A stretch of DNA of 21,637 bases from IMG/VR virus record IMGVR_UViG_3300006803_000114, positions 1 to 21,637 of that record, one strand, 5' to 3'. Position 1 is the first letter of the stretch. Each line of letters begins with the position of its first letter. Positions 3,798 through 21,460 of this stretch are shown here, piece by piece. Source of the stretch: a virus. The notes under the pieces were generated by a model that was not told the DNA's origin, did not search any database, and saw only the letters and a program-made list of their open reading frames with translations. Position numbers and translations under genes: made by a program.

Positions 3798-3804
3798 TCA
3801 ACAA

Positions 3805-3820: not shown

Positions 3821-3836
3821 GCAACTCACCAACAAC

Positions 3837-5314: not shown

Positions 5315-5332
5315 GGCACCGGGGGCTTTTTT
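5303..5332 (+). terminator. Possible weak terminator overlapping promoter copy 3
   Basis: GCCC (5303-5306) can pair with GGGC (5314-5317) or with the GGGGGC at 5321-5326 that is followed by TTTTTT. The stem is short. The T-run also forms the first T-tract of promoter copy 3, so one element may end the upstream transcript and activate the next promoter. Confidence 0.3.
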
Positions 5333-5382: not shown

Positions 5383-5391
5383 GTTTACACG

Positions 5392-5601: not shown

Positions 5602-5609
5602 TCAACACA

Positions 5610-5625
5610 GCCCCCTCCGGGGGGC
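5610..5625 (+). other. Intergenic GC hairpin, unit 3
   Basis: GCCCCC-TCCG-GGGGGC, 6-bp stem, no T-run. It is followed by CACAACCAACACAAACCAAC and the ATG at 5648, the same hairpin-plus-leader arrangement as the other units. Confidence 0.7.
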
Positions 5626-5647
5626 ACAACCAACACAAACCAACAAC

Positions 5648-5821
5648 ATGAAATTCACATATTCCGCCAATTATTCCACCGAGTCAGGCAAAGTATTCTC
5701 GATCTATTTCGACACCGTCGAAGAGGCTTTGCTCATGCTCAAGACATTCAAAAAGCATTTCGGCGGGCTTTGCCTTGTCAATTGTTCATGGACAATCGAC
5801 GGAGAGAATTTTATCGCCTAA
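5648..5821 (+). CDS. Short hypothetical protein, 57 aa
   Basis: An ATG at 5648, directly after the AACAAC leader, opens a 57-aa frame ending TAA at 5819-5821. It begins MKFTYSANYSTESGKVFSIY and continues FDTVEEALLMLKTFKKHFGG, then ends with LCLVNCSWTIDGENFIA. The predicted order is strand, strand, helix, strand, strand, a plausible small alpha/beta fold. Two cysteines (C42 and C46) could be structural. It fills the space between two GC hairpins exactly, with good codon composition, so it is very probably real. Function is unknown. Confidence 0.7.
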   Translation: MKFTYSANYSTESGKVFSIYFDTVEEALLMLKTFKKHFGGLCLVNCSWTIDGENFIA

Positions 5822-5828
5822 ACAACAA

Positions 5829-5844
5829 GCCCCCTCCGGGGGGC
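5829..5844 (+). other. Intergenic GC hairpin, unit 4
   Basis: GCCCCC-TCCG-GGGGGC, followed by ACAACCAACGAGAACCAAC and AACATG. The surrounding 50 bp are almost identical to those around 6375, including the first codons after the ATG (ATGAAAAC). Confidence 0.7.
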
Positions 5845-5866
5845 ACAACCAACGAGAACCAACAAC

Positions 5867-6103
5867 ATGAAAACAGACATACAACACGCCCTCGACACCG
5901 GGCTCATTTGCGAAAGCATGCTCACCCCCGAAGAGGTATTCGAAGCCAAGCTCGACGACGCCGACAAGGCCTATGCCGAGCAACATGATCTCAGCTTTGA
6001 AGACATGTTTTATTTCAAAGCCGAGATGCAAGCCGAAGCCGAGGCAGAGGCACTCAACAAGATACGAATCGCCGTCCGCGACGCCTATCCAATCGTCGAC
6101 TAA
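5867..6103 (+). CDS. Hypothetical acidic helical protein, 78 aa
   Basis: This 78-aa, strongly acidic protein is rich in Glu and Ala. It has one long predicted helix in the C-terminal half (AEMQAEAEAEALNKIRIAV). The N-terminus MKTDIQHALDTG follows the AACAACATG leader. A possible metal-binding set of acidic residues (KLDDADKAYAEQHDLSFED) is visible but does not match an EF-hand spacing convincingly. No family is recognised. GC hairpins lie on both sides of the gene. Confidence 0.7.
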   Translation: MKTDIQHALDTGLICESMLTPEEVFEAKLDDADKAYAEQHDLSFEDMFYFKAEMQAEAEAEALNKIRIAVRDAYPIVD

Positions 6104-6110
6104 ACAACAA

Positions 6111-6126
6111 GCCCCCTCCGGGGGGC
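6111..6126 (+). other. Intergenic GC hairpin, unit 5
   Basis: GCCCCC-TCCG-GGGGGC between TAAACAACAA and GCAATCAATCATCAAA. The downstream leader here is A/T/C-rich rather than the usual AACCAAC, showing that the hairpin can be kept while the leader drifts. Confidence 0.7.
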
Positions 6127-6142
6127 GCAATCAATCATCAAA

Positions 6143-6367
6143 ATGGAACCAAAAAACTATCCCGAAATCATGGGATCATTACTCGGGCGAAGCATTTGCC
6201 TCGAGGTCGATCTCAAGCACTTACTCGACGAGATCATCAATATGGACACGTCGACAATTGAGAGCGCAACATACGAAAGATTAGAGCTCGCCAAGAGGGC
6301 GAGCAAGATCCTATCATATACGCAAGAAACGATCCTCAACGCCGAGGACAAACTCAAAATCACCTAA
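6143..6367 (+). CDS. Hypothetical protein, 74 aa
   Basis: This is a 74-aa helical protein. The sequence shows two amphipathic helices (LEVDLKHLLDEIINM and TYERLELAKRASKILSYTQE) joined by a short acidic linker. It may be a small helical bundle or an oligomerising adaptor. There is no signal peptide, zinc motif or enzyme motif. The start ATG at 6143 lies 16 bases after hairpin unit 5. No recognised family. Confidence 0.7.
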   Translation: MEPKNYPEIMGSLLGRSICLEVDLKHLLDEIINMDTSTIESATYERLELAKRASKILSYTQETILNAEDKLKIT

Positions 6368-6374
6368 TCAACAA

Positions 6375-6390
6375 GCCCCCTCCGGGGGGC
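6375..6390 (+). other. Intergenic GC hairpin, unit 6
   Basis: GCCCCC-TCCG-GGGGGC, followed by ACAACCAACGAAAACCAAC and AACATG. It is the last unit of the series; downstream genes are joined by overlaps or short gaps instead. Confidence 0.7.
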
Positions 6391-6412
6391 ACAACCAACG
6401 AAAACCAACAAC

Positions 6413-6775
6413 ATGAAAACAATATACAAATACAACATCAGCCCCGGACAAGGGGGGATCGCTCGAGTCAAAATGCCCAAAAACGCGGTCGTCATGCACT
6501 CCGACGCCAACGAGTCAGGGCTCTTTGTATGGGCCCTCGTCGACATCAAGGCAGAAACGGAGAATCGCTATTTCGGATTATTCCAGACAGGCCAGAAATT
6601 GCCCGACTCGATCGCCGATTGCATCTTGATCAAGACCTTTGTGACTCGATTGCTCACTAAGGCCCCGGTCGTGCCCGGCGACATGCCCGAGTTTAAGACA
6701 TGCGTCGATCACTTATGGGAAGTCTCAGCAAAAACAGTCAAAGAGCTCCGCGAAATCCACAATCAAACCAACTAA
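6413..6775 (+). CDS. DUF7352-like phage protein
   Basis: This 120-aa protein begins MKTIYKYNI and then has IARVKMPKNAVVMHSDANES, GLFVWALVD and FGLFQTGQKLPD. This order (MKTIYKY start, MP-x-x-A, WALVD, F...GTG-like segment) is the pattern I associate with the small DUF7352-type phage proteins, which have no known function. The fold is probably mostly beta. The family call is from memory of the pattern, not from a search. The C-terminal VDHLWEVSAKTVKELREI extends beyond the usual short form. The gene lies after the last GC hairpin and eight bases before the next gene. Confidence 0.6.
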   Translation: MKTIYKYNISPGQGGIARVKMPKNAVVMHSDANESGLFVWALVDIKAETENRYFGLFQTGQKLPDSIADCILIKTFVTRLLTKAPVVPGDMPEFKTCVDHLWEVSAKTVKELREIHNQTN

Positions 6776-7588: not shown

Positions 7589-8056
7589 ATGAGCAACTAC
7601 AACAAAATAATACTAATAGGCAATCTCACAAAAGACTGGGAAATCAAACAATTCGAGGGCGGCAATTGCGTTGCCAGCGGATCGATCGCAGTCAACGAGG
7701 CGAGGATCGACAAAGACGGCAACAAGATCGAGACAACCCTTTTCGTCGATCTCACGGCATGGGGCAAGCTCGCCGAAACCCTCAGCAAATACACGAAACG
7801 AGGATCCTCGATTTTAATCGACGGCAAACTCAAGCTCGAGGATTGGCTCGACAAAGAGACGGGCGCGAAGAGATCGAAACATTCCGTCACAGTGACAAAC
7901 ATGCAGTTTCTCGGAGCGGCACCGTCGAAAGACCCCGAGGCGAAGCCATACGAGGCCCCGGAGAGGCCCCAACAACAACGAGCGTCTCATTTACCTCCGA
8001 GCAACCCCGTCAGGCAGCAAGCCGCAAATCAGCAAGAAGACGAAATCCCATTTTAA
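7589..8056 (+). CDS. ssb: Single-stranded DNA-binding protein
   Basis: This 155-aa protein coats single-stranded DNA during phage replication and recombination. The N-terminal OB-fold covers residues about 1-110, with NKIILIGNLTKDWEIKQF, the strand VASGSIAVNEA, FVDLTAWGKLAETL and YTKRGSSILIDGKL, all as in bacterial SSB. A Pro/Gln-rich flexible linker follows. The C-terminus ends EDEIPF, a near-consensus SSB tip for recruiting partner proteins. Length and layout are normal for the family. It lies directly downstream of the DnaA-like gene and one base before the next gene. Confidence 0.95.
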   Translation: MSNYNKIILIGNLTKDWEIKQFEGGNCVASGSIAVNEARIDKDGNKIETTLFVDLTAWGKLAETLSKYTKRGSSILIDGKLKLEDWLDKETGAKRSKHSVTVTNMQFLGAAPSKDPEAKPYEAPERPQQQRASHLPPSNPVRQQAANQQEDEIPF

Positions 8057-8057
8057 T

Positions 8058-8321
8058 ATGAAAGACGCTAGCGAAGAAAAAGACGGATACAAAAAGATCG
8101 CGCAGGGGATCAACGACATCGTCGTGAAATGCCGAAAGCAATACGGCGACAAATGGCCGGGAATGAGGGCCCGGGCCCGGGAGCAATTGCAAATGCAAGT
8201 CACGAGCGATCTCAATGAGCGGAGCGTCGCACTAGCGACAGCAATGCAAGCAATGGACGAAAACAACGAAGACCTCGCCGTCGTGCTCGTCGCGGCCGCT
8301 TACGACCCCGAGAAATCATGA
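8058..8321 (+). CDS. Hypothetical helical protein, 87 aa
   Basis: This is an 87-aa, largely helical protein that begins one base after the SSB stop and overlaps the next gene by ATGA at 8318-8321. It has a basic centre (KCRKQYGDKWPGMRARAREQ) and an Ala/Leu-rich C-terminal helix (ATAMQAMDENNEDLAVVLV). The basic helix could bind nucleic acid or an SSB partner, but no family is recognised. The DNA for the basic segment contains a GC-rich palindrome (CCCGGGCCCGGG near 8170), which looks like a consequence of Ala-Arg codons. Confidence 0.7.
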   Translation: MKDASEEKDGYKKIAQGINDIVVKCRKQYGDKWPGMRARAREQLQMQVTSDLNERSVALATAMQAMDENNEDLAVVLVAAAYDPEKS

Positions 8322-8683
8322 GCGAGAAAGCAGTCAAAGCAATTCAAGAGGGGATCTTTTACATCTACAAAGCGAAATGCACGAGCGTTTACGATGGCGA
8401 CTCGATCACCCTCGACATCGATCTCGGATTTAATCACACCATGAGCGATCAGAAAATTCGCCTTTATGGGATCAACACGCCAGAGATCCGAGGCGACGAG
8501 AGAGAGGCCGGGCTCGTCTCGGCGGAGCGACTCAGAGGGCTCATACTCGGCAAAGAGATCATGCTCGTCAGTCACAAAGACAAGTCAGGCAAATACGGGA
8601 GATGGCTCGGGACGATTTACCTCGAGGGGCAAAATCTCAATCAATTACTCGTCGACGAAGGCCTCGCGGAATTGTATAGTTGA
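8318..8683 (+). CDS. Staphylococcal-nuclease-fold (thermonuclease-like) protein
   Basis: The protein cleaves DNA or RNA if active and is 121 aa with no signal peptide, so it would act in the cytoplasm. The SNase/TNase OB-fold is seen from about residue 14 on: KCTSVYDGDSITLDIDLG, IRLYGINTPEIRG and YGRWLGTIYL. Likely catalytic residues are R48, E56 and R95, matching Arg35, Glu43 and Arg87 of staphylococcal nuclease. D28 would be a calcium ligand. The usual second Asp of the R-x-x-x-x-D-T-P-E motif is Asn (N53), a variant common in phage members, so activity remains plausible. Its job may be host DNA breakdown or recombination beside SSB. Confidence 0.85.
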   Translation: MSEKAVKAIQEGIFYIYKAKCTSVYDGDSITLDIDLGFNHTMSDQKIRLYGINTPEIRGDEREAGLVSAERLRGLILGKEIMLVSHKDKSGKYGRWLGTIYLEGQNLNQLLVDEGLAELYS

Positions 8684-9096: not shown

Positions 9097-10614
9097 ATGA
9101 GCATCGAATCAGTACATACGCAGTACGAAGAGGCGGTCGAAGGATGGAAAACCGTCATTGATTGCATATCGGGAGGGCGTACCATCAAAAAGCTCGGAGA
9201 GACATATCTCCCGAAGCTCGACGGACAAACCGAAACGGAATATCAAAAATTTAAGAATCGCGGGAATTTTTTCAATGGCACAGCGACAGCAAACCGGGCG
9301 CAAACCGGGCTCTTGACACGCAAGCCCCCGGAGGCCGAAACCGAACTCGACGATTCGATCATTGCGGACGTCGACTTGCAAGGCAACGACATCTCGGGAT
9401 ACGTCGTCGAGCTCGCCGAGGCAATCTCGAGCACGGGCCGGGCGTGCACTCTGATCGAATGGTCGGAAGAGGAACAAAGGCCTTATTTTGCTTTTTACAG
9501 GGAGGTCGACATCCTCGACTGGCACACAACCCGGAGCAAAGGCAAAAACGTCCTCGACTATCTCAAAGTGAGAGAGCGAGACGACGAGATGAAAGAGGAC
9601 GACATCTCGACGGCGAACACAGAGCGAATCAGGATTTACAGGCTCAGAGATGGAATACTGACAGTCGACGTTTACAGCGACAGGAACAAAACGAGTCAAG
9701 TCACGGGATCCGGGGTGCAAACTTATCTCGGGAAGGGCGTCACGTCATCAATGGAAGCCGAAGAAAGCCTCGAGCCGAAGCGAGGGGGCAAGAATCTCGA
9801 TTTCATTCCCGTAGTTTTTCACGGGGCAACGCATACCCGGCCAGACGTCGGAGAAATCCCGCTCGAGGATTTGGCACAAATCAACATCAGTCACTATGTT
9901 TCAAGCGTCGACCTCGAACATGCAAGGCATATTGCAGCATTACCGACACCGTACGCGACAGGGATCGACGACAGCAACGGGGGCTCATTCAAGCTCGGGA
10001 CGGAATACGCGTGGATCAGCGAGAACGACAACGCGAAATTCGGGTTTCTCGAGTTTACGGGAAGCGGGCTCAGTGAGCTCACAAAGGCCCTCGAAGAGAA
10101 AGAGAAACAAATGGCCGCTCTTGGCGCGAGATTGCTCTTTGCGGAGTCGCGAGACGCCGAGGCATTCGAGACAGTCCAACTCAGGGCAAGCGCAGATACG
10201 GCAAGCCTCAGCCGAATGGCGGGGGCAATGAGCGCAAGCCTCAGCCGGGCAATGCAAATCGCGGCGTGGTGGACGGATAAAACCTCAGCCCAACGGCCCA
10301 GTGATTACGCCGAAAGCAATTTCCTCGTGATTGCTCAAGACTTTGTCTCGGCAGGGATGCAAGCCCAACACCTCACGGCCCTCGTCTCAGCCCTCCAAAT
10401 GGGGGCGATCTCATACCCGACGTTTTTCTACAACCTCCAAAAAGGCGAGATTTACCCGGACGGGCTCACGCTCGACGAAGAAAAACGCGATCTCGAGCAA
10501 GAAAACCCTATGCCAACACCTCAGCCCGGGCCCGAGCTCGAGCCCGGGCCCGGGCCCGATCAAGCCGAGGAAACGCCAGAGCAAGCCGAAGAGCAAGCCG
10601 AAGGCGAAGAGTAA
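9097..10614 (+). CDS. Portal protein, DUF4055-like
   Basis: The protein forms the dodecameric ring through which DNA enters and leaves the capsid. The 505-aa length is normal. YLPKLDGQTETEYQKFKNRG near residue 38, then FNGTATANRAQTGLLTRKPP and GYVVELAEAISSTGRACTLI, and LAQINISHYVSSVDLEHARH near 262, follow the pattern of the DUF4055 phage portal-like family. The long helical region at about 327-395 fits the portal stem and crown. The last 50 residues are Pro/Gly/Glu-rich (PQPGPELEPGPGPD) and disordered. Its position, followed by a MuF protein 12 bp away, is the classic head order. A possible Shine-Dalgarno, AAAGGA, precedes the start. Confidence 0.85.
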   Translation: MSIESVHTQYEEAVEGWKTVIDCISGGRTIKKLGETYLPKLDGQTETEYQKFKNRGNFFNGTATANRAQTGLLTRKPPEAETELDDSIIADVDLQGNDISGYVVELAEAISSTGRACTLIEWSEEEQRPYFAFYREVDILDWHTTRSKGKNVLDYLKVRERDDEMKEDDISTANTERIRIYRLRDGILTVDVYSDRNKTSQVTGSGVQTYLGKGVTSSMEAEESLEPKRGGKNLDFIPVVFHGATHTRPDVGEIPLEDLAQINISHYVSSVDLEHARHIAALPTPYATGIDDSNGGSFKLGTEYAWISENDNAKFGFLEFTGSGLSELTKALEEKEKQMAALGARLLFAESRDAEAFETVQLRASADTASLSRMAGAMSASLSRAMQIAAWWTDKTSAQRPSDYAESNFLVIAQDFVSAGMQAQHLTALVSALQMGAISYPTFFYNLQKGEIYPDGLTLDEEKRDLEQENPMPTPQPGPELEPGPGPDQAEETPEQAEEQAEGEE

Positions 10615-10626: not shown

Positions 10627-13600
10627 ATGGCCTCAGCGAATGAATACCTCGAGGACTGGTCGAACACAAACGCGATCAACATTTTACGCGTCGAGGCCGG
10701 GATACGAAAGGACGTGGTCAAAGAGCTCGAGAAGCTCGAGCAAAACCTTGTCGGGCAAATAGCGAAAGCGAGCCCGAGCAAAAAGGGGAGTTTGCAAGCA
10801 TTGCTCAAAGACACGAGCGCAACGATCAATGGCTCATACCAGACGATCAGCAAGAATCACGGGGCGGATCTCGACAAACTGGCAAAGACGCAAATCAAAG
10901 GCACGACAGCCGCACTCAATGGGGCGATAGGCGTCCCGATATTGCGGAGGCAAGTCACAGAGACGCAAGTCAACGCCGTCATGAAGCGGAGCAATGTCGA
11001 AGGGCACAGCTCGGGGGCGTGGTGGAAAGCTCAAGACAAAAGCCTCCGATTCAAATTCGAGGGCCAAATGAGGCAAGGATACCTCGCCGGGGAAGACGTG
11101 GGGGATCTCGCAAAGAGGATCCGGGGCACCAAGGCGAACAACTACAAAGACGGGATCATGAACGTCTCGAAGGCTCAAGCCGAGGCACTAGCGAGAAGCT
11201 CAGTACAAACCGTTAGCAACGAGGCCCGGCTCAAGACGATCGAAGAAAACGACGACATTGTCAAAGCCGTCAAATGGATGGCAACCCTCGACGCGAGAAC
11301 GACGAAGACGTGCATGGCCCTCGACGGCAAGACTTGGAGCGTCCCGGAATACAAGCCGATCGATCACGACAAAGAATTTCCCGGGCCAACAGCTCATTGG
11401 GGGTGCCGATCAACGCAAGTCCCGGTCATGCCGAGTCTCGCGGATCTCATCGGGAAGCCGATAAAGGCAATGGACGACATGGAGTTTCAAGACGCCGTGC
11501 AAGCCAAGCTCGAGGCGATGGGAATGAGCGAAGAGCAAAGAGCCGCGGCCGTCGTCAACTCAAGAGCAAGCATGGACGGGCAAGTCCCAAAAACGAAGAC
11601 TTACAATGAATGGCTCGGAACCAAATCGCCAGCATTTCAGAACCAAGTCCTCGGGCCGACTCGAGCGAAACTTTTCAGAGAGGGGCAACTCACGATCAGC
11701 GATCTCACCAATCAAAACAATCGGCCGCTCAGGCTCAATCAGCTCAACGCGGCAATCGACTCAGACGGGCCCGAGATAGCAGTCGAAACGGAAGGGATCC
11801 CGCAAACGCAAACCCCGGCGATCAAGCTCGTCGCGGATTTGCCACAAACAACCCTCGCGAGAAAGCTCGCACAGGGCGAGGGATACGAAACCGTCGACGC
11901 CGTTTATATTGACGGGCTCGGGCAACTCAAGCCTCCGACCCCGGGGGAATTTGCCGAATACAAGGGCGTGCTCAACCTGAGCATCGACACCGATCAAGTC
12001 ACAGGGCAAAAGCTAAAACTCGACGACATCAACCTCTCGACAGACAAGGTCGTCAAAGAGGATCTCGAGAAGCTGGTCGAAAAGCCGATCACGAAAAAGA
12101 TTTTCGTCGTCAGGCAAGAGGACGGGAGTCTCGTCGCAATCGACGGGCATGCAGAATGGGCCGCGGCAAAGCTCAGGGGAGACACGGAGATCGACGCGTT
12201 TGTGCTCGACGTGAAGCAATACAACGCCGAGCAAAAGATCGCCGACGAGGTCGACTTTGCAAAAGCGGGCGACAAAAGCTCGATCAAGCTCGTCGAAGCA
12301 ATGGACGGGCTCAAAAAGACATTCCCGAATCTCGAGCCCGACACTCTACTCAAGCAAGCCGAGGGCGTGGTCATCGAGAAACAAGCGGCAGCAACAAAAG
12401 CGAGTTATCTCAGCAAAGCCAAAAAGGCAATCGCCGAGGGCAAAATCCCGACAGCCGCGCAGCAAAAAGCAATAAGCACACTTACCGGGCCCGAGATTAC
12501 AGCTTTTAACGAGGACGTCGAAGCATACACAGCCAAGGCTCAAGAGAAACAACTCAATAAGACGTTTACAGACGACCTCAAGAGCAAGCTCGAGCAATTC
12601 AAGACGGGCACAGAAGAGCAACAATCAGTTTATGATTATTTAGGCGAGAAGATCGAGGCGGAGTTTCCGACCTCGACAAAGGATCTCGACGCGGCAATCA
12701 AAATGCTCAACTCCGAGGTCGACGACGTCGCAGCATTCGAGCTCGCGAAACTTGTCGTCGAAGGCGGATCCAAATACAGCCAAATCAACGAGAAGACATT
12801 CAAAGAAACAACAGGTTTCACAACAGGAACGAAAAATTTCGGCGATTTGGTCGACACACTGCCAGACGGGCAAGCTCACGCGATACTCGAGAAATTCAAA
12901 GCCGTAAAAGCAGAGAAAACAGCGGCGGCAACGGAAGCGACATATCTCAGCAAGGCGAAAAACGCAATCGCAGAGGGGAAGAAACCGACCCCGGCACAGC
13001 AAAAGGCGATCGACAATATCCCAACAAGCGAGCTCGACGACTTTTACAAAGACGTCGACGAGAAGAAAGCGGCAAAAAAGACAGAGGTTTTCAGTATGAA
13101 GATCGAAGGGCTCGAGGCCGCGATCGCCGATCAGGAGAAACAACCAGTCAAGCAAACGGAGACGACAGCCAAGCTCGACAAAGACGTCAAAAACCTCGAC
13201 CTCTATTTCCCGCAAGCCGACAAGCTCGAGTTTGTCAAACAACTCAACGGATCAACAAAGCCTCAGCTCATGGTCGACCCGGAGACGGGCAAACAATGGG
13301 TCGTCAAGAGCGACAAGTTTGAGAATAACCTGACCAAGCAAGCCCTATACAGCGAGGCGACAGCCGACAAAATTTATCGAGAGATGGGGGCAAAGGTGCC
13401 GGGATCCAAGGCAATGGTCATCAATGGGGATACTTACAAGATCGCCGAGTATGTCGACAATAGCCTCGAGCTCGGAAAATGGCAGAGCAAAGTCAACACA
13501 GCCAGCGGAGACTCTCAGCTCGGGGCGAAAGTCAAAACCAAGCTCAGAGAGCACTTTGTCCTCGACTCATTACTCGGGAACCGGGACGTCGCCGGGCAAT

Positions 13601-15780
13601 CAAACGACAACATTCTCGTCACTACCGACTCGGAACCCTTTCGGATCGACAACGGATCATCGTTGTCATTCAGAGCAAAAGGGGACAAAAAAGACTCGGA
13701 CGCATGGGGCCCGGTCGTCGGAGAGCTCGAATCAATGAGGGGCCCATTGGCGGCGGGAGAAACCGCGGACATATTCAAGGGCATATCTCAGAATGAGATT
13801 CACAATCAAATACGGGACATCGTCAAAAACAAGGCGAAGATCCTCAATATTGCAAGCGAATCACAACAGTCGAAAGACGTCACGATCCTCGAGCAAAGGA
13901 TCGACTATCTCGAGACATTACTCCCGGCGGCAAAGAAAGAGGTCAAAAAGAAAGTTTCACTAAGGGGAGACGGGCTCGATTATTTCCATAAAGATTTCGA
14001 GACAGCATCAGCGAAGCGATACGGCACAACCATCAAGGCAGGATTTGACACATTCGAGGATCAAGCCCTCTCTGTGTGGAAAGAGACAACCCCGACGGGG
14101 GAAAAGGTGGTCAAGATCCAAGGCAAATTGCTCAAAAAGTCATCTCAAGATTTGATGAAAAATCTCGAGAAAGCCGGGCTCGACTTATCAGGAACAACGG
14201 CCCCGGCGTCTCAAACAGCGGCCCCGGCAATAAGCCCGTACGAAGTCGACGGCCACTGGCTCGCGTTGAAAAAAGCGGCGGGAAACATCGGATACCATGC
14301 AAGCAACAAAAACGGGGCGTCGGTAACTTACAACCCCGAGACGATGAAAGGGCTCGACGACGTAAAGTCTCAAATCGAAACCTTTTTAAAACTTCAAAAG
14401 GACAATCTTTATGGGATGGCCGATCTCGAATCGAAGCAAGCAAAAGAGCTCATCGAATCGATCGAAGTCCTCGGGTATTACGACAAAATGGCGGACGATT
14501 TGCTCAAAGCAAAAAAAGCAGAAGCCCCGCCGTCGAAAATATGGAAACGATACGAGCCTAAAGTCATTGACGCCGCACCGGCAGTAGAAAAAACAAACGA
14601 GGTCGTCATCAATGGGGTCACAATAACAAGAAGTAGAGACACACAATTCAATTTCACAAAAAAAGTCGTCGGGGCCGACGGCAGATTGCAAGACACGACA
14701 GAGGTCAATGGAACTATTGACGGGAGGCAATTCGATCACAAGGTCGACAAAATGATCATTGCCAAGGCCGGGGGCGTAGAGGTGACAATTGTCCCGTATG
14801 AGGGCCGCACTCCGAAATCAAGCCCGGACACGACGCGGGGAATGAATGGCTTTGTCAGGGTCAAGATACAGGGCGACGACAGCACAGCGGCAACGATCGA
14901 GGGCATGAGAGCATTGCAAGCGATCGGGCTCAAAGTGGATCCGCCAACACAAGCACAGCGAGAGCTCTTGTATATTCACAAAACAGCCTATCTCAACGAC
15001 GACATTTCCGATCCGGCATACAAAAAAGCAACAGGCGGGAAAGGCACGCCAGAAGCAAAGCTCGAAAAGGTCAAACAATGGGCCGAATCAAAATACAAAA
15101 TCACGATACCTCGAGAGCCGAAGGACTATCATCGATATTACAACCCCGACGGGGAGCCCCCTCTCAATGGAGTCGGAGACGTAATTTACAGGCGAATGGA
15201 CGTCGACCCGGACTATGCGAAAAAGAAAGAGGACGAGGTCGTCTTCTATCATAGATCAAAATATCTCAAAAAAACCGTCTCTGCATGGCTCGAAAACGGA
15301 GGGCATACGACATCAACAGAAGATCGACTCAGGACGGGGGCGGACATGACGGGCGGCGAGTCATCAGAGACGGACATGAGAAGAGGGGGATCGGCATTTC
15401 TTTATTCCAACTTGACAAGCCCGCAAACGGCGCAGCAATTAACGGGCGTAATATTCAAAGGCGACAACCTCACAAGGGTCGATCTCGCTAGTCACAATTA
15501 CGACTCATACGGAGAATGGGAAGCATCGGCAACCGGGCTTCGCAGGAGATCCGTTGACAAGATAGCCGAGCAAAGAGGGATCGGAGTCAATAACAACTCG
15601 GGACTTTTCAAAAATGGCTTGCCAATGACGGAGGTACAGTATATTACTATGGGCTCACAGAATGCTCGTGCCGAATATCTCAAGGAATTGAAAGCGGCAG
15701 GTTTTAAAGAGTGGCCAGACGGGCGAAGGCTCGAGGACGTCGTGATTTCAACCATACAGCAACACGTCGGAACACAATGA
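10627..15780 (+). CDS. Giant MuF-type minor head protein fused to a multidomain (polyvalent) effector
   Basis: This is a 1717-aa fusion, several times longer than a typical MuF protein (about 300-500 aa). Residues about 110-262 are the MuF domain: ALARSSVQTVSNEAR from 187, ATLDARTTKTC and the terminal HWGCRS near 257-262. Residues about 425-540 resemble a ParB/sulfiredoxin-like fold, with FVVRQEDGSLVAIDGHAEW (IDGHAEW at 505-511). Residues 587-630 and 766-810 are a duplicated helical unit. About 860-1060 form a lipid/protein-kinase-like domain: WVVK with K894, catalytic loop LLGNRDVAGQSNDNILV (N985, D987, N995) and metal-binding IDNGSSL (D1008). The C-terminus (about 1510-1717) may be an ADP-ribosyltransferase-like domain (R1522, TTST at 1561-1564, EWE at 1630-1632). 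The protein is probably packaged in the head and injected. Domain calls after MuF are pattern-based. Confidence 0.85.
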   Translation: MASANEYLEDWSNTNAINILRVEAGIRKDVVKELEKLEQNLVGQIAKASPSKKGSLQALLKDTSATINGSYQTISKNHGADLDKLAKTQIKGTTAALNGAIGVPILRRQVTETQVNAVMKRSNVEGHSSGAWWKAQDKSLRFKFEGQMRQGYLAGEDVGDLAKRIRGTKANNYKDGIMNVSKAQAEALARSSVQTVSNEARLKTIEENDDIVKAVKWMATLDARTTKTCMALDGKTWSVPEYKPIDHDKEFPGPTAHWGCRSTQVPVMPSLADLIGKPIKAMDDMEFQDAVQAKLEAMGMSEEQRAAAVVNSRASMDGQVPKTKTYNEWLGTKSPAFQNQVLGPTRAKLFREGQLTISDLTNQNNRPLRLNQLNAAIDSDGPEIAVETEGIPQTQTPAIKLVADLPQTTLARKLAQGEGYETVDAVYIDGLGQLKPPTPGEFAEYKGVLNLSIDTDQVTGQKLKLDDINLSTDKVVKEDLEKLVEKPITKKIFVVRQEDGSLVAIDGHAEWAAAKLRGDTEIDAFVLDVKQYNAEQKIADEVDFAKAGDKSSIKLVEAMDGLKKTFPNLEPDTLLKQAEGVVIEKQAAATKASYLSKAKKAIAEGKIPTAAQQKAISTLTGPEITAFNEDVEAYTAKAQEKQLNKTFTDDLKSKLEQFKTGTEEQQSVYDYLGEKIEAEFPTSTKDLDAAIKMLNSEVDDVAAFELAKLVVEGGSKYSQINEKTFKETTGFTTGTKNFGDLVDTLPDGQAHAILEKFKAVKAEKTAAATEATYLSKAKNAIAEGKKPTPAQQKAIDNIPTSELDDFYKDVDEKKAAKKTEVFSMKIEGLEAAIADQEKQPVKQTETTAKLDKDVKNLDLYFPQADKLEFVKQLNGSTKPQLMVDPETGKQWVVKSDKFENNLTKQALYSEATADKIYREMGAKVPGSKAMVINGDTYKIAEYVDNSLELGKWQSKVNTASGDSQLGAKVKTKLREHFVLDSLLGNRDVAGQSNDNILVTTDSEPFRIDNGSSLSFRAKGDKKDSDAWGPVVGELESMRGPLAAGETADIFKGISQNEIHNQIRDIVKNKAKILNIASESQQSKDVTILEQRIDYLETLLPAAKKEVKKKVSLRGDGLDYFHKDFETASAKRYGTTIKAGFDTFEDQALSVWKETTPTGEKVVKIQGKLLKKSSQDLMKNLEKAGLDLSGTTAPASQTAAPAISPYEVDGHWLALKKAAGNIGYHASNKNGASVTYNPETMKGLDDVKSQIETFLKLQKDNLYGMADLESKQAKELIESIEVLGYYDKMADDLLKAKKAEAPPSKIWKRYEPKVIDAAPAVEKTNEVVINGVTITRSRDTQFNFTKKVVGADGRLQDTTEVNGTIDGRQFDHKVDKMIIAKAGGVEVTIVPYEGRTPKSSPDTTRGMNGFVRVKIQGDDSTAATIEGMRALQAIGLKVDPPTQAQRELLYIHKTAYLNDDISDPAYKKATGGKGTPEAKLEKVKQWAESKYKITIPREPKDYHRYYNPDGEPPLNGVGDVIYRRMDVDPDYAKKKEDEVVFYHRSKYLKKTVSAWLENGGHTTSTEDRLRTGADMTGGESSETDMRRGGSAFLYSNLTSPQTAQQLTGVIFKGDNLTRVDLASHNYDSYGEWEASATGLRRRSVDKIAEQRGIGVNNNSGLFKNGLPMTEVQYITMGSQNARAEYLKELKAAGFKEWPDGRRLEDVVISTIQQHVGTQ
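12385..13065 (+). repeat. Duplicated helical unit inside the MuF fusion
   Basis: Two segments, from about 12385 and 12922, encode AAATKASYLSKAKKAIAEGK and AAATEATYLSKAKNAIAEGK, each followed by PT-x-AQQKAI and an acidic helix. They lie about 540 bp apart (roughly 180 residues) and are similar at both the protein and DNA level. This is an internal duplication of a linker or scaffold module between the ParB-like and kinase-like domains. The intervening DNA is unique sequence. Confidence 0.7.
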
Positions 15781-16157
15781 AAACAAAAGCGAAAATACTT
15801 GAAGATCTCAACGAGAGCGGCGGAATGTTTTTCCGGGATCCAATGATGAAAGACAAAGAGGTATTCAGCTATTGCGGAACCATTGACGACGAAAACGGGG
15901 AGCCATACGTCTTTTATCACGTCGCCGAAAAGGGGCATTTTATAGGCAAGCTCGAAGACTTTATCCCGGGCGGGGACGGAAAGCTCGTGAAAATCTACAA
16001 AGACGACATACCAGAGTATCAACTCGTGCCCCCGGATCGCGTGATTCAAATGCCAAGAGGGGAACTTCTCGACAGGATCGACCAGAATCGAGAGTTTATG
16101 ACAAGAGACGAGGCGATCGATCAACTGGGTATTCCGACTCCGGAAAACAATCCATGA
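15777..16157 (+). CDS. Hypothetical protein coupled to the MuF fusion, 126 aa
   Basis: The 126-aa protein starts at 15777 and overlaps the 1717-aa gene by ATGA, so it is translationally coupled to it. A longer frame from 15711 lies inside that gene and is rejected. It begins MKTKAKILEDLNESGGMFFR and has aromatic, beta-rich segments (YVFYHVAEKGHFIGKLEDFI), then a C-terminal acidic tail. No family is recognised. The tight linkage to a candidate toxin or effector makes an immunity protein or chaperone possible, but an independent head function is equally open. Its own stop overlaps the lipoprotein gene by ATGA. Confidence 0.75.
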   Translation: MKTKAKILEDLNESGGMFFRDPMMKDKEVFSYCGTIDDENGEPYVFYHVAEKGHFIGKLEDFIPGGDGKLVKIYKDDIPEYQLVPPDRVIQMPRGELLDRIDQNREFMTRDEAIDQLGIPTPENNP

Positions 16158-16324
16158 AAAAAATAATACTGACAATACTGACAGGGGCCCTCGTTTCGAG
16201 TTGTACGCCCGCACAGATGGCGGCATGGCCCGTTGCGATAGGAATCAAGCAAGAGGGCGTCGAAGCGTCATACAGCGCAAAAGGGGGCCTCGTGATCACC
16301 GTCGATCAGAAAACTGGCAAATAG
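16154..16324 (+). CDS. Small lipoprotein, 56 aa
   Basis: An ATGA overlap at 16154 opens a 56-aa frame ending TAG at 16322-16324. It begins MKKIILTILTGALVSSC: a basic start, a hydrophobic stretch and a lipobox VSSC with Cys at position 17, so it should be lipidated and exported. The mature peptide is about 40 residues and contains YSAKGGLVITVDQKTGK. Phage lipoproteins of this size can act in lysis (spanin-like) or superinfection exclusion, but no partner spanin is seen here, so the role is open. It is the last gene before the palindrome at 16344 and a terminator, so it ends the operon of the MuF fusion. Confidence 0.75.
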   Translation: MKKIILTILTGALVSSCTPAQMAAWPVAIGIKQEGVEASYSAKGGLVITVDQKTGK

Positions 16325-16343
16325 GCCAAAACACGAATAGACT

Positions 16344-16365
16344 TACCTCGCCACGTGGCGAGGTA
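16344..16365 (+). other. Perfect 22-bp palindrome
   Basis: The arms TACCTCGCCAC and GTGGCGAGGTA are perfect inverted copies around a central ACGT. In RNA it would form a nine-bp stem with a four-base loop, ending 20 nt after the lipoprotein stop; as DNA it could be a dimeric-protein operator. It has no T-run of its own but lies just ahead of the terminator-like hairpin at 16372. Confidence 0.75.
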
Positions 16366-16371
16366 GAAAAC

Positions 16372-16412
16372 AGCCTCTTTCGTATCGGACACGACGCGGG
16401 AGGGGCTTTTTT
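16372..16412 (+). terminator. Terminator-like hairpin before the scaffold gene
   Basis: AGCCTCTTTC (16372-16381) can pair with GGGAGGGGCT (16398-16407) over ten positions including wobble pairs, followed by TTTTT. The loop is 16 nt and the stem is uneven, so it is weaker than the hairpins at 17286 and 18493. It ends the MuF-lipoprotein transcript in this reading. Confidence 0.5.
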
Positions 16413-16414
16413 AG

Positions 16415-16443
16415 TTGCGGGGAGGGGCGTCGGCGGATATGAA
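16415..16443 (+). promoter_or_regulatory. Candidate weak promoter for the scaffold gene
   Basis: TTGCGG (16415-16420) is followed after 17 bp by TATGAA (16438-16443), and the scaffold ATG at 16453 lies nine bases after the -10. The spacing matches promoter copies 2 and 3 and the portal candidate, but each hexamer is only a partial match. AAGGAG at 16445-16450 ends two bases before the ATG, too close for an optimal Shine-Dalgarno. Confidence 0.3.
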
Positions 16444-16452
16444 AAAGGAGAA

Positions 16453-17238
16453 ATGCTGAAATACATCATAAACGACATAGACAGCGTCGACGAGGCGAGC
16501 CGATCGCTTTACGAAGACGACGGGACGGGCAAGTTTGTTTTACAAGTAGAGGGCGCAGTCCCGAAACAACAGGTCGACGACTTTCGGGCGAACAACCTCA
16601 AACTCAAAACAGCCCTCGAGAAATTCAACGGCCTCGACCCGGAGAAAGCCGCGGAGATTGCGGCCGCGTATCAGGGCGTGACGGACGGCACGTATGTTGA
16701 AAACGCCAAAAAGGCGGACGTCGACAAAATGCTCGAGTCGAGGACGGCGGAGATGCAAAAGAAATACGAGAGCGAATTGACTCTCGCAATCGAGACAGCC
16801 TCGACAATGAAAAACGAGTTGCAAACCGTCAAAGTCAATCAAGCACTCTTGACAGCGGGCGCGACGGCGGGATTGCGCAAGGGAGCCGAGGCGGATCTCC
16901 TGAGCCGGGGCCGGGAAGTATTCTCACTCGACGATCAAGGCAACCTCGTCGCAAGGGATGAAAAGGGCGAAGTCAGATACGGAGCCGCGGGCCAAGCATT
17001 CAGCCCGGGTGAGTTTATCAAAGAGCTCGCAAGCAAAGCCGAGCACTTATTCGACCCCAACGCGGGCGGAGGTGCGGGCGGGAGCGGAAGCTCAGACAGC
17101 TCAATGGGAGGCTCGAACCCATTCAAGAAAGAAACGCACAACATGACGGAGCAAGCAAAGCTCATCAAAACGGATCCGCAAAAAGCAAAGCGTATGGCAG
17201 CGCAAGCGGGCGTCACGATCTCGATCCCGGGAATGTAA
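16453..17238 (+). CDS. Capsid scaffolding protein (putative)
   Basis: This 261-aa protein would guide capsid assembly and then leave or be cleaved. The start is at 16453; the open frame extends back to 16201 but the extension is Arg-rich and crosses the lipoprotein gene and the palindrome. It begins MLKYIINDIDSVDEASRSLY, then VDDFRANNLKLKTALEKFNG and a long coiled-coil-like region (about 85-160). A Gly/Ser-rich linker precedes the C-terminal motif NPFKKETHNMTEQAKLIKTD ending in AAQAGVTISIPGM. The order acidic start, coiled coil, linker and basic TEQ...AAQAG end is typical of phage scaffolds. It lies directly before the major capsid gene, as expected. Confidence 0.75.
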   Translation: MLKYIINDIDSVDEASRSLYEDDGTGKFVLQVEGAVPKQQVDDFRANNLKLKTALEKFNGLDPEKAAEIAAAYQGVTDGTYVENAKKADVDKMLESRTAEMQKKYESELTLAIETASTMKNELQTVKVNQALLTAGATAGLRKGAEADLLSRGREVFSLDDQGNLVARDEKGEVRYGAAGQAFSPGEFIKELASKAEHLFDPNAGGGAGGSGSSDSSMGGSNPFKKETHNMTEQAKLIKTDPQKAKRMAAQAGVTISIPGM

Positions 17239-17327: not shown

Positions 17328-17456
17328 GACGATTCACGGCCCGGCATGCTTAAACAATAGCGAAGACCAAAATCGAAAAGCCCCGGGGGGGTGGATCGAC
17401 GTTTCGGGGAAACGGATGCACGGTCGACAAAACACAAAACACAACATCAAAACATT
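17320..17456 (+). promoter_or_regulatory. Candidate capsid promoter and long leader
   Basis: TTGTTTTTGACG (17320-17331) repeats the element at 9053-9064; it offers a -35 TTGACG, with a poor -10 near TTAAAC at 17350. The leader that follows has a small hairpin CGTTTC-GGG-GAAACG at 17400-17414 and a GCCCCGGGGGGG run near 17380. It ends in the A/C-rich stretch ACAACATCAAAACATT, matching the ending AAAACATT of the 93-aa gene leader. No Shine-Dalgarno is seen. Confidence 0.35.
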
Positions 17457-18467
17457 ATGGCAAAAACACAAGTTGCAGACATCATCGTCCCCGAACTTTT
17501 TGAGGGATACGTTGTCGAGCGTACAGCGGAAAAGAGCCGACTCTTTCAGAGCGGGCTCATCTCGATCGAGCCGACTCTCGTCAGCAAAATCACCGAAGGC
17601 GGACAAACGGTAAACATTCCATTTTTCCAAGACCTCGCAGGAGTCGACCAAGTCCTCAGCGACGGAAGCTCACTCACTCCGAAGAAAATCGTTGCCACAA
17701 GCGACGTCGGGATCGTGCATTTGCGCGGCGACGCCTTCTCTGTGAACGACCTCAGCCGCAAGCTCTCGGGCGCGGATCCGCTCAACACGATCATCGATCT
17801 TTTTGCAGACTATTGGATGCGTAAGCATCAAGACTTGCTACTCTCAACGCTCACGGGCGTATTTGGAGAAGCAACAATGGCAGCAAACTCAACCCTCGAC
17901 ATCTACCATACATCAGGCGGAGTCGGAACGGCAGGAGTCGACAACGTGATCAACGGCGACGTAATCCTCGACGCAAAGCAAAAGCTCGGCGACAACAAGG
18001 GATCACTCACCGCGATTGCAATGCACTCAGCCGTCGAAACCAAGCTCGCACAAGACGACTTGATCGATTACATCAAGCCCTCCGAAGGGATGGCCGAGAT
18101 CAAAGTCTTTCAAGGAATGGAAGTCATCGTCGACGACAAAATCACCATCGAGACAATCGACGGAGATCCCGTCTACTCGACTTACTTGTTCGGACGAGGT
18201 GCCTTTGCATACGCTCCCGGCGACGGCAGCGAAGCCGCCGAAGGCGGAGAGGGCACATGGGCCGTTGAAATGGATCGCGACGCACTCGCAGGAGATAGTC
18301 ACATCATCAACCGCAAACGATTCATCTTACACCCTCGCGGCGTAAAATGGCTCGGAGCGGCAATGGCCGGGCTCGCCCCAACAAACGCCGAGGTTGAAGA
18401 TCTCACAAACTACTCACAGGTTTACGAGACAAAGAACGTGCGTATCGTACGCGTCCGTCACAACTAA
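17457..18467 (+). CDS. Major capsid protein
   Basis: This is the shell-forming head protein, 336 aa. The start at 17457 follows an A/C leader; an upstream in-frame extension from 17391 falls in the leader hairpins and is rejected. VPELFEGYVVERTAEKSRLF, then SGLISIEPTLVSKITEGGQT, IPFFQDL and the GIVHLRGDAFSVNDLS segment follow the pattern of the phage coat-protein family with an HK97-type fold. DLFADYWMRKHQDLLLSTL is the central helix. The C-terminus NVRIVRVRHN is typical of an ordered capsid. The gene is bracketed by two strong terminators, and the codons look more GAC/GTC/GCC-biased, consistent with high expression. Scaffold upstream confirms the order. Confidence 0.92.
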   Translation: MAKTQVADIIVPELFEGYVVERTAEKSRLFQSGLISIEPTLVSKITEGGQTVNIPFFQDLAGVDQVLSDGSSLTPKKIVATSDVGIVHLRGDAFSVNDLSRKLSGADPLNTIIDLFADYWMRKHQDLLLSTLTGVFGEATMAANSTLDIYHTSGGVGTAGVDNVINGDVILDAKQKLGDNKGSLTAIAMHSAVETKLAQDDLIDYIKPSEGMAEIKVFQGMEVIVDDKITIETIDGDPVYSTYLFGRGAFAYAPGDGSEAAEGGEGTWAVEMDRDALAGDSHIINRKRFILHPRGVKWLGAAMAGLAPTNAEVEDLTNYSQVYETKNVRIVRVRHN

Positions 18468-19414: not shown

Positions 19415-21460
19415 ATGCCCGACTATACCGTCAAAGCAGACATCAATACACTCCTACGGGCCGACGATTTCCCGGACGCCCGGACAAAGCTCGGCCTTGG
19501 ATCCGCGGCAACCTCAAATCAAGAGGATTTCGCGACAGGCGCGGAGGGCGATCTCGCGGGGACGGCATTACAGCCCGCCGCGATAGGAGTCACAGTCGGG
19601 GCCCATGTCGACGCCGCATCAAACGCGGAGGCGATCGCGGGCACAGAGGCGGGGCTCAGGACATTCTCACCTCTGAGGATTGCGGAAGCAATCACGGCCC
19701 TCGGGTCGGGGGGAATAACCGTCGGAGATACGACAGAGATCAACCTCACTCTCGCAGCCGGGGAAATTACAGCCGACATCAACGCGGCATCAATCGCAAT
19801 CGGAAAACTCGACGGATCAATCAATACAAGTCTCGGCAAAGCCGACACAGCATTGCAAGCCGCCGCAATTGGAGTCACGGTCGGAGCTCACCTCGACGCC
19901 GCCTCAAATGCCGAAGCAATAGCAGGAACGGAGGCTGGGCTCAGGACATTCTCACCTCTGAGGATTGCGGAAGCGATCACGGCCCTCGGGTCGGGGGCGA
20001 TCACCGTCGGAGATACGACGGAGATCAACCTCACCCTCGCAGCCGGGGAGATTACAGCCGACATCAACGCGGCCTCAATCGCGATCGGAAAGCTCGACGG
20101 ATCAATCAATACGAGTCTCGGCAAAGCCGACACAGCATTGCAAGCCGCCGCAATTGGAGTCACGGTTCAAGGATTTGACACGATTCTCGAGAATACGACA
20201 GCAAGCTATACAACCGAAGAGCAAACCAAGCTCGCCGGGATATGGGGAGGCGAAAACAAGGTCGACGCGACAACGGCCCCGACAGCAAACAGCGACTCAG
20301 CAAATACCGACACAAACGGAACATTTTCAGTCGGGAGCGTATGGGTCGACACGACGGCAAACGAGGCGTATCGTTGCGTCGACTCGACTCCGACAGCGGC
20401 CGTATGGGTCAACACAACCCTCGGGACGGACGACCTCGCACAAATTGCAACGAGCGGATCCGCAAGCGATCTCACAACCGGGACGCTCTCGATCGCCAGA
20501 ATCGCGGCGGGATCGATCACGGAAAACGAGCTCAATGCAACGACAAACAGCTCTCTCGATCTTGCAGACACGGCCAGTCAGCCGGGTCACATGCACACGC
20601 AAGTCGATATATCAGATTTGTCCTCAGCTTCGACAGGCGTGCTCACAGGCGGGATATTGAGACTCGGAGCAACATCGACCCGATTCTCGATCGACGACGG
20701 CACAGGGATCATCGTCGACGAATTTGGGGCGGTCACGGAGGTAGCATGGTCGGGATTACTCAACAGAGAACCGACAAACCTCAACGCCCAACAAATTACC
20801 TTTTTGAGCATCAATGCCGCCGGGCAAATTCTCGAGCAATCCGGGCCATGGACACCGCAACAACGGAGGGAGCAAATTTGCATCGGCGTCGCCGTGCATG
20901 TCGATTTCACAAATGTCGTCGCGGTAAACAATGAGCAATCGATTGCATTCAATCCCATGAGCTCGACGTATGACATCGGCGGGGCCCTTGGTTTCCTTAA
21001 CCTCGACGGGAACGTGTTCTCGCCCGACGCTCAGACGGCGACAATGGCGATCGCAAAATCGGAGGGGGAAATTTTCAAAATGGGGGCAAATTACAACGTC
21101 AACACAAAGTCCCCTCACAACAAAACCCTCCCCTTACTCGATCCCGTGATTTTTGGGTATAGATACTCGGCGGGAAATACGGACGCGAATCAAACTGTCA
21201 TTGACCCGAACAACCTCGACGACGGGGCAAACGGATTGACGCCGATTTCCGGGAATGCAAATGCGAATATCTGGTCAATACAAAGAATTTACAGCTTCAT
21301 CTCAAACAATGTATTCATACAAAGGGGAGTCGAAGAGTTTGGGAGTCAAGCCGACGCGATCGCCGGAGTTGGCTCCGAGAATTACATGGTCGAATCCTCG
21401 ATCGAGGCAAACGGATTATTTCGTGGATATCTCATTGTCAAAAAGGCGAAACCGACTTGA
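19415..21460 (+). CDS. Tail-fibre-like protein with a 95-residue tandem repeat
   Basis: The 681-aa protein is probably a fibre or appendage. The N-terminal domain (about 1-53) is followed by a 95-residue unit at 54-148 repeated at 149-243, with only three residue differences. The repeats are Thr/Ala/Gly-rich (VGDTTEINLTLAAGEITADI) and presumably beta-helical. A central linker includes the segment VGSVWVDTTANEAYRCVDST, common in phage fibres. The piece SQPGHMHTQVDISDLSS (GH-x-HTQ-x-DI) is typical of tail-fibre proteins. The C-terminal domain (about 420-681) contains QRREQICIGVAVHVDFTNV, a pattern I associate with phage fibre heads. The stop overlaps a TTG start of the next gene. No receptor can be deduced. 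Confidence 0.8.
   Translation: MPDYTVKADINTLLRADDFPDARTKLGLGSAATSNQEDFATGAEGDLAGTALQPAAIGVTVGAHVDAASNAEAIAGTEAGLRTFSPLRIAEAITALGSGGITVGDTTEINLTLAAGEITADINAASIAIGKLDGSINTSLGKADTALQAAAIGVTVGAHLDAASNAEAIAGTEAGLRTFSPLRIAEAITALGSGAITVGDTTEINLTLAAGEITADINAASIAIGKLDGSINTSLGKADTALQAAAIGVTVQGFDTILENTTASYTTEEQTKLAGIWGGENKVDATTAPTANSDSANTDTNGTFSVGSVWVDTTANEAYRCVDSTPTAAVWVNTTLGTDDLAQIATSGSASDLTTGTLSIARIAAGSITENELNATTNSSLDLADTASQPGHMHTQVDISDLSSASTGVLTGGILRLGATSTRFSIDDGTGIIVDEFGAVTEVAWSGLLNREPTNLNAQQITFLSINAAGQILEQSGPWTPQQRREQICIGVAVHVDFTNVVAVNNEQSIAFNPMSSTYDIGGALGFLNLDGNVFSPDAQTATMAIAKSEGEIFKMGANYNVNTKSPHNKTLPLLDPVIFGYRYSAGNTDANQTVIDPNNLDDGANGLTPISGNANANIWSIQRIYSFISNNVFIQRGVEEFGSQADAIAGVGSENYMVESSIEANGLFRGYLIVKKAKPT
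19574..20143 (+). repeat. 285-bp tandem duplication in the fibre gene
   Basis: Units 19574-19858 and 19859-20143 are adjacent and exactly 285 bp (95 codons), followed by a 21-bp start of a third copy. Most DNA differences are at third codon positions. The three amino-acid changes are P/A, V/L and G/A at residues 54/149, 65/160 and 100/195. Confidence 0.93.

What the first reader, a model, noticed from the sequence alone, without database searches (positions are those of the whole stretch)
10627..15780. 1717-residue MuF fusion is a strong candidate for a virion-injected polyvalent effector
The protein links the MuF head domain to a ParB/sulfiredoxin-like segment, a kinase-like domain and a long C-terminal region. 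Known MuF fusions carry toxin or effector domains into cells with the DNA (established for polyvalent proteins of phages and conjugative elements). Here four or more distinct modules occur in one chain, and the combination with this specific kinase-like fold is unusual.
Basis: partly seen in the sequence, partly recalled or inferred. Interest (0 to 1): 0.8.

Follow-up and report, generated by a model that had tools for sequence, protein, structure and literature searches.

The report
Phage head protein with kinase-ADP-ribosyltransferase tail
A phage head protein carries, on one very long chain, a protein-kinase-like enzyme followed by an ADP-ribosylating-enzyme-like domain; many environmental phages share this pairing, which suggests a widespread way for phages to send host-modifying enzymes into bacteria with their DNA.

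Summary
The ORF is real: 10627-15780, 1717 aa, between portal and scaffold/capsid genes. Its N-terminus is a MuF head domain. Residues ~447-534 resemble ParB/SerK (weak). Residues ~860-1104 are a complete CtkA/PI4K-II/HipA-like kinase (Z 15.6) with conserved catalytic residues. The unassigned C-terminus (1321-1717) folds confidently (pLDDT 87); its last ~170 residues best match the ADP-ribosyltransferase (ART) DarT (Z 8.6). No Pfam family reached its cut-off there.

The combination is not unusual: 44 of 46 distinct, not 5'-truncated ORFs with this ART carry the kinase, 39 of 46 a detected MuF. Of 46 kinase ORFs without this ART, 41 show an R-S-E-type ART motif. Kinase-ART coupling looks like the defining feature.

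In the window's subclade the ART glutamate kept by 56 of 59 relatives is Ser/Thr and a conserved Arg is Asn, yet the domain stays under purifying selection. Against its nearest kinase relative, the ART module appears exchanged. A 126-aa ORF overlaps the stop codon: candidate immunity or partner gene. Virion delivery is inferred, not shown. New variant of a known kind.

The parts
9097..10614 (+). portal protein (DUF4055), gene directly upstream
   Evidence: Pfam PF13264 E 3.5e-34; PHROG 145 portal E 2.4e-103
10627..15780 (+). the 1717-aa MuF fusion protein, whole ORF
10627..11766 (+). MuF / head-morphogenesis part, residues 1-380
   Evidence: Pfam Phage_Mu_F 145-264, PHROG 241 1-375, NCBIfam TIGR01641 SPP1 gp7 minor capsid 154-267
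11965..12228 (+). ParB/SerK-like stretch, residues ~447-534 (weak; among the loci held, found only in the window and L012)
   Evidence: low-confidence model
12304..13191 (+). helical spacer, residues ~560-855, with two similar stretches (around residues 584-620 and 763-799)
   Evidence: sequence; helices in model
13204..13938 (+). CtkA/PI4KII/HipA-like kinase domain, residues ~860-1104; K894, E910, D987, N995, D1008 conserved
14026..14172 (+). small strand-strand-strand-helix element with a conserved E-D pair, residues ~1134-1182
14647..15255 (+). pre-ART subdomain, residues ~1341-1543, found before this ART in 88 of the 90 ART ORFs
15247..15777 (+). DarT-like ADP-ribosyltransferase fold, residues ~1541-1717; H1542 and R1569 conserved, S1658 where 56 of 59 distinct ORFs have Glu, N1595 where 53 of 59 have Arg
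15777..16157 (+). 126-aa ORF overlapping the stop (ATGA); candidate immunity or partner protein, no relative found

Best explanation
The gene encodes a head-built, DNA-co-delivered host-modifying protein. The MuF part is thought to dock it at the portal inside the capsid; a small ParB/SerK-like insert and a helical spacer follow. The business end is a C-terminal unit of about 860 residues: a CtkA/PI4K-II/HipA-like kinase, a small linker element, a pre-ART subdomain and a DarT-fold ADP-ribosyltransferase. On entry the kinase would phosphorylate, and the ART bind or modify, a host target so that early infection favours the phage. Shown here by computation: the frame, the gene order, the folds, the conserved kinase residues, and the conserved kinase-ART order. 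Inferred: packaging, injection, phosphorylation, ADP-ribosylation, targets. In this subclade the ART lacks the glutamate that nearly all relatives keep, so either it uses another catalytic set or it works as an NAD- or substrate-binding domain that aims the kinase. The small overlapping gene probably protects the producing cell or assists packaging.
For: Gene order portal-MuF fusion-scaffold-capsid. Kinase fold Z 15.6/15.4/15.2; conserved residues K894 92 of 94, E910 93 of 94, D987 94 of 94, N995 94 of 94, D1008 93 of 94 nonredundant domains. ART: pLDDT 87.3, pTM 0.86; DarT chains rank 1-7, Z 8.6-7.2, then a Salmonella NAD-binding effector (7dn9) 5.3 and OspC3 5.0. Kinase in 55 of 59 distinct ART ORFs, 44 of 46 not truncated at the 5' side. 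Other ART type in kinase ORFs without this one: of 46 C-termini examined, R in 44, first Glu of ExE in 43, second in 43, all three in 41 (counted from the rows); Pfam at E 0.01 finds ADPrib_exo_Tox in 10, ART in 5, ART-PolyVal in 1 of 46. Purifying selection between L013 and L015: dN/dS 0.23 ART, 0.29 kinase, 0.20 MuF, 0.44 linker (ratios). Overlapping downstream ORF.
Against: No virion proteomics or activity data. Foldseek's best E for the ART is only 0.012, the tool warns that best Z values of 7-8 are common for models without a clear match, and no sequence search of PDB or Pfam hits an ART. The near-invariant Glu is missing in this very protein. The ParB part is low confidence. Two MuF-ART ORFs (L004, L149) have no kinase, so the pairing is not absolute. 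The kinase substrate could be a lipid or small molecule: PI4K-II ranks level with CtkA.
Confidence: 0.7

Rival explanations
1. Only the kinase is enzymatic. The window's ART has become a non-catalytic pseudo-ART that binds NAD or the target and positions or regulates the kinase.
For: Ser at the Glu position (window, L013/L014) or Thr (L015), and Asn at a conserved Arg in all three, while 56 of 59 and 53 of 59 distinct ORFs have Glu and Arg. The ART-characteristic Glu is essential in DarT1 (E152; PMC11543638, passages). The domain is still under purifying selection.
Against: H1542 and R1569 are kept; which model residue overlays DarT E152 was not measured on coordinates; some ART-superfamily enzymes work without this Glu (recalled).
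Confidence: 0.35
2. A MuF polymorphic toxin: the cargo harms a competitor or superinfected cell and the small downstream gene is its immunity gene, as for Bxa/Bsi.
For: Stop-overlapping 126-aa ORF; 29 of 61 ART genes examined have a downstream ATG ORF overlapping the stop at offset -3 or 0 (counted). The small ORFs fall into several groups. C-terminal module apparently exchanged between the window and L012. Published precedent Bxa (PMC11699363, passages).
Against: Phage genes are packed and I ran no control for other gene junctions, so a close downstream ORF is weak evidence; some groups of small ORFs merge when the seed is changed; the window's small ORF is an orphan; no toxicity data.
Confidence: 0.3
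3. The long extension is structural, for example for head-neck assembly or DNA ejection, with enzyme folds reused only as scaffolds.
For: MuF proteins are structural in phages such as SPP1 (PMC5576092, passages); the stretch between MuF and kinase varies greatly in length.
Against: The five kinase residues are kept in at least 92 of 94 nonredundant domains and the ART Glu in 56 of 59 ORFs. 979 phage records match the protein but none covers 80% of it, and the 40 listed cover only the MuF part, so the extension is not needed for heads in general.
Confidence: 0.1

Closest known systems
MuF polymorphic toxins, e.g. Bxa of a Bacteroides prophage and Apk2 (PMC11699363, PMC5576092; passages read)
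   Same: MuF N-terminus in the head-gene block, enzymatic C-terminus including ARTs, small ORF directly downstream
   Different: The word 'kinase' has 0 occurrences in both main texts; here a kinase precedes a DarT-like ART and the protein is 1717 aa
Polyvalent proteins (PMC5512222; passages and the protein-kinase section read)
   Same: Many domains in one chain; MuF, ART, kinase and ParB among the listed parts; predicted injection. The paper also reports MuF fused to a zeta-toxin-like kinase in phages, so MuF plus some kinase is already in print
   Different: Their main kinase group lacks the C-terminal lobe, whereas this one aligns over 221 residues of CtkA; the zeta-toxin kinase is a different enzyme. 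Their ARTs are of the Tox-ART-HYD2 clade; this one is nearest DarT by fold
Phage T4 Alt (as described in PMC5512222 and PMC9503650 passages)
   Same: Head-delivered ART concept; PMC9503650 reports Alt/VIP2 and N4-type ARTs fused to MuF
   Different: T4 Alt is placed in the R-S-E clade in PMC9503650; no kinase partner known to me (recalled)
DarT1 / DarT2 DNA ADP-ribosyltransferases
   Same: Fold of the last ~170 residues, Z 7.2-8.6
   Different: 7-14% identity; in the window's clade the Glu is replaced; DNA as substrate is not shown
CtkA, PI4K-II, HipA/HipT kinases
   Same: Fold and the kinase Lys, Glu, Asp, Asn, Asp (roles assigned from general knowledge)
   Different: 12-20% identity; Pfam HipA models hit 1 of 8 alignment members each at E 0.0075 and 0.21, and not the window
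Pseudanabaena phage Pan1 head morphogenesis protein UXO93730 and Actinomycetia phage DSL-LC01 WJZ48510
   Same: Share the C-terminal ART module
   Different: Pan1 lacks the kinase; DSL-LC01 is over 3000 aa with kinase and no MuF hit in the part held

Membership tests
MuF (SPP1 gp7-like) head proteins | Phage_Mu_F domain above curated cut-off | tested here: met
   49.3 bits, cut-off 29.6; TIGR01641 45.7, cut-off 39.65
MuF (SPP1 gp7-like) head proteins | gene between portal and scaffold/capsid | tested here: met
Polyvalent proteins | two or more distinct effector domains in one chain near virion genes | tested here: met
   kinase and ART folds, gene order
Polyvalent proteins | packaged and injected | not testable with these tools
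   needs proteomics
Polyvalent-protein kinase group of PMC5512222 | loss of the C-terminal kinase subdomain | tested here: not met
   model aligns over 221 residues to CtkA residues 2-292, model range 480-724; feature as worded in the section read
CtkA/PI4KII/HipA-type kinase fold | whole-domain structural match | tested here: met
   Z 15.6, rmsd 4.4, 221 aligned
CtkA/PI4KII/HipA-type kinase fold | catalytic Lys, Glu, Asp, Asn, metal-binding Asp | tested here: met
   present and conserved; roles recalled
HipA (Pfam HipA_C, HipA_2) | Pfam model above cut-off | tested here: not met
   no hit for the window; best E 0.0075 in 1 of 8 relatives
ART superfamily, DarT-like | ART fold | tested here: met
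   DarT chains rank 1-7, Z 8.6-7.2, and further ARTs at ranks 8, 9 and 12; Foldseek E only 0.012
ART superfamily, DarT-like | catalytic Glu | tested here: not met
   S1658 in the Glu column of the family alignment; met by 56 of 59 distinct ORFs; overlay on DarT coordinates not measured
ParB/sulfiredoxin | fold and the conserved His/Arg motif | tested here: inconclusive
   weak profile hits; window reads GHAEW where SerK has GHHRW
MuF polymorphic toxins | downstream immunity gene | tested here: inconclusive
   overlapping ORF present, function unknown
MuF polymorphic toxins | toxic C-terminus | not testable with these tools
   needs expression
MuF polymorphic toxins | carried by temperate phages | not tested
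   window is a fragment; relatives lie in bacterial genome contigs such as Geminisphaera colitermitum TAV2

The most novel reading that the evidence does not exclude
A CtkA/PI4K-II-like kinase is a standing partner of phage head-delivered ADP-ribosyltransferases of at least two unrelated clades, so phosphorylation and ADP-ribosylation are one coupled act, for example phosphorylation priming or gating the ART. In the window's subclade the ART has become a constrained variant site with new chemistry or a substrate-aiming role.
Probability: 0.3. Interest if true: 0.78.

Novelty: new variant of a known kind. Interest (0 to 1): 0.58.

Why it matters
Head-delivered phage ARTs and MuF fusions are known in general. 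A kinase that accompanies ARTs of two different types across many viral contigs would define a coupled effector unit, not random domain shuffling. It gives a direct test: does the kinase phosphorylate the ART, its target, or a lipid or nucleotide? The C-terminal ART module reached no Pfam cut-off where cut-offs were shown and no Pfam E below 0.0026, so it could be curated as a family. A pairing of this kinase with an ART was not seen in what I viewed of the papers returned by my searches. Most of those papers were seen only as listings, five as passages (PMC5512222, PMC9503650, PMC5576092, PMC11699363, PMC11543638) and one of these also in one section; preprints and most subscription papers are not held.

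Tried and rejected
Single-protein search of viral contigs gave only two fragments with 100% identical segments. Alignment A1 gave 80 pattern hits, none a relative. A4 had no stretch conserved enough to search. The central region 11716-13240 had no phage-database match. PDB sequence searches with the whole protein, the kinase profile and the ART-module profiles gave only hits that I judge to be chance. Pfam hits such as Fibrinogen_aC, AOC_like and Stonustoxin_helical are below cut-off and were rejected. Influenza PB2 hits have rmsd 8 or more and were rejected. The search of predicted viral structures with the ART model gave no match at E 0.001 or better; the best was a Mycobacterium phage Larenn protein at 4.7e-3. 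A CYTH/triphosphatase likeness of the pre-ART part (PH1819 E 0.55; VIA Z 2.9 and 2.8) is too weak to claim; that PH1819 and 1yem are CYTH proteins is recalled. Rfam found nothing in the window.

Rows dropped and limits; five of 46 rows (L029, L051, L055, L070, L087) lack one or both Glu, and two of these (L029, L051) also the R; the columns come from an automatic alignment of diverse ends. In one search, C-termini shorter than 120 aa and near-duplicates were dropped; 46 of the 59 remaining references went into, leaving out six from named phages and seven truncated or redundant ones. For the first structure job all 52 computed relatives were used. For the second, 35 of 42 computed relatives plus L012 and the window were used; six were left out for length and L156 without a special reason. 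The counts cover the ART ORFs of the loci held, window and two named phages included; loci from later genome searches are not in them. Kinase relatives were capped at 80 of 409. The genome scan returned 4 relatives from 159 pattern matches.

Full report
What is there. The window is a 21,637-base virus record with no megablast match among 50,697 phage records. One frame of 1717 codons occupies 10627-15780. Around it lie small and large terminase genes (1133-1648, 1645-3060), a DUF4055 portal (9097-10614), a scaffold-like and a major-capsid gene (within frames 16201-17238 and 17391-18467) and a tail-fibre-like gene (19415-21460).

N-terminal part. Residues 1-380 are a MuF/SPP1-gp7-type head protein. 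In the phage collection 979 records match the full protein, none covers 80% of it, and the 40 listed all lie within residues 1-359.

ParB-like part. Residues ~447-534 are the least certain. The window and L012 share this insert; iterative searching of the loci then held found no third copy, and a scan of viral contigs returned only a 99% identical fragment of the window's kind (L001) and L012's contig. The best external hits are ParB-fold proteins, SerK and ParB, but the model is poor there. L013 and L015 lack the insert.

Kinase. tblastn with this part found 19 phage records, four of them annotated ADP-ribosyltransferase or ADP-ribosyltransferase toxin. An eight-member alignment keeps the Lys, Glu, Asp, Asn and Asp expected of a kinase. 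The search with it gave 409 relatives in viral contigs, of which 80 were kept. The model of residues 381-1340 (mean pLDDT 74; kinase blocks 83-97) matches CtkA, PI4K-II, HipT and HipA at Z 15.6 down to about 11 over roughly 200-230 residues. Foldseek's first list is led by ordinary protein kinases with poor superposition. The window keeps K894, E910, D987, N995 and D1008.

C-terminal ART module. The end of the protein is related to the ends of Pan1 UXO93730 and, by alignment and profile, DSL-LC01 WJZ48510. Two further viral-contig scans gave 69 and 17 loci, partly overlapping. The 397-residue model is confident. The best structural matches are DarT structures (Foldseek prob 0.99, E 0.012; VIA ranks 1-7, Z 8.6-7.2), then a Salmonella effector bound to NAD (7dn9, which I recall as SopF) and OspC3, with the ART CteC at rank 12; other rows match only the helices or strands of the pre-ART part. 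The tool warns that best Z values of 7-8 are common without true kinship, so the assignment rests on the ARTs standing together at the top and on the motif. The family signature is N-E-T-x-F-K, with Glu in 56 of 59 distinct ORFs; the three exceptions are the window, L014 (same protein as L013) and L015, which also have Asn at a conserved Arg (50 of 53 and 48 of 53 in the alignment used for folding). DarT1 E152 and DarT2 E160 are known catalytic glutamates (PMC11543638, passages); that column 1658 is the same site is inferred from its place at the start of a strand and its conservation.

Architecture. Of 90 ART-bearing ORFs, 60 read MuF-kinase-preART-ART, one of them with two MuF hits. After collapsing to 59 distinct C-termini, 55 have the kinase. 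Of the 46 not truncated at the 5' side, 44 have it and 39 have a detected MuF; the two without are Pan1 and L149. The distance from kinase to pre-ART is 197-331 residues, median 257, n=54. In kinase ORFs without this ART, 46 C-termini were examined: R in 44, first Glu in 43, second Glu in 43, all three in 41, and Pfam at E 0.01 finds ADPrib_exo_Tox, ART or ART-PolyVal in 10, 5 and 1. The kinase therefore accompanies two different ART types.

Exchange and selection. The window and L012 are 79% identical in MuF and 70% in the kinase, but 25% in the following stretch and 24% from residue 1341 on, where the window is 45% identical to L013. This points to exchange of the C-terminal module just after the kinase. 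Between L013 and L015, which both lack the Glu, dN/dS is 0.23 in the ART (0.168/0.730), similar to MuF 0.20 and kinase 0.29 and below the linker 0.44 (ratios from a simple pairwise count). The variant site is therefore not simply decay.

Downstream gene. ATGA joins the fusion gene to a 126-codon ORF, 15777-16157. Among 61 ART genes with downstream sequence, not all distinct, 57 had some ORF of 45 codons or more starting within -30 to +150 by a permissive rule, and 29 an ATG at offset -3 or 0. No control was made with other gene junctions. Those small proteins fall into several groups, some of which merge when the seed is changed; the window's has no relative among the 57 and no PHROG. Published MuF toxins have immunity genes or candidate immunity genes here (PMC5576092, PMC11699363; passages).

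Hosts. The genome-contig scan gave four loci: Geminisphaera colitermitum TAV2, a Verrucomicrobia MAG, a Deltaproteobacteria MAG and a Hydrogenedentota MAG. In TAV2's family 2 of 150 genomes searched match the ART profile, TAV2 included, and in its order 3 of 177 match the kinase profile. This suggests, without proof, a Verrucomicrobia link.

Verdict. The new points are the kinase-ART pairing across ART types, the DarT-like ART module and its variant site in this subclade.

Noticed in passing
window 19-106, 3099-3186, 5327-5414: Three copies of an 88-nt element (83-100%) containing TTGCAA-17 nt-CATTAT, with a palindromic ACGGATCCGT between the hexamers in two copies: looks like a promoter with built-in operator.
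   Followed up: no
window 3789-3851, 5594-5656, 5813-5875, 6095-6157, 6359-6421: Five copies of a 63-nt unit (70-100%): GC-rich hairpin GCCCCCTCCGGGGGGC, followed in four of five by ACCAACAAC just before an ATG, without an obvious Shine-Dalgarno.
   Followed up: no
window 19562-20131: 285-nt tandem duplication (89%) inside the tail-fibre-like gene.
   Followed up: no
window 7589-8056 and 8318-8683: Single-strand DNA-binding protein and an endonuclease-like gene (PHROG 44 and 452) sit between the terminase and portal genes.
   Followed up: no
L012 and L180 (IMGVR_UViG_3300006803_000001, 53,875 bases): The related fusion gene is split over the two ends of the contig with about 40 residues shared, which suggests a circular or terminally redundant genome.
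   Followed up: partly
window 14605-14937 (residues ~1327-1437): Start of the pre-ART part shows faint likeness to CYTH/triphosphatase folds.
   Followed up: no
L005, L008, L009: The kinase-ART or kinase genes of Dolphis, Mecenats66 and fHe-Yen8-01 are each followed by a ~160-aa gene, then by one annotated nucleotide phosphatase, NUDIX hydrolase or 'particle associated protein'; in fHe-Yen8-01 all three are annotated particle associated.
   Followed up: partly
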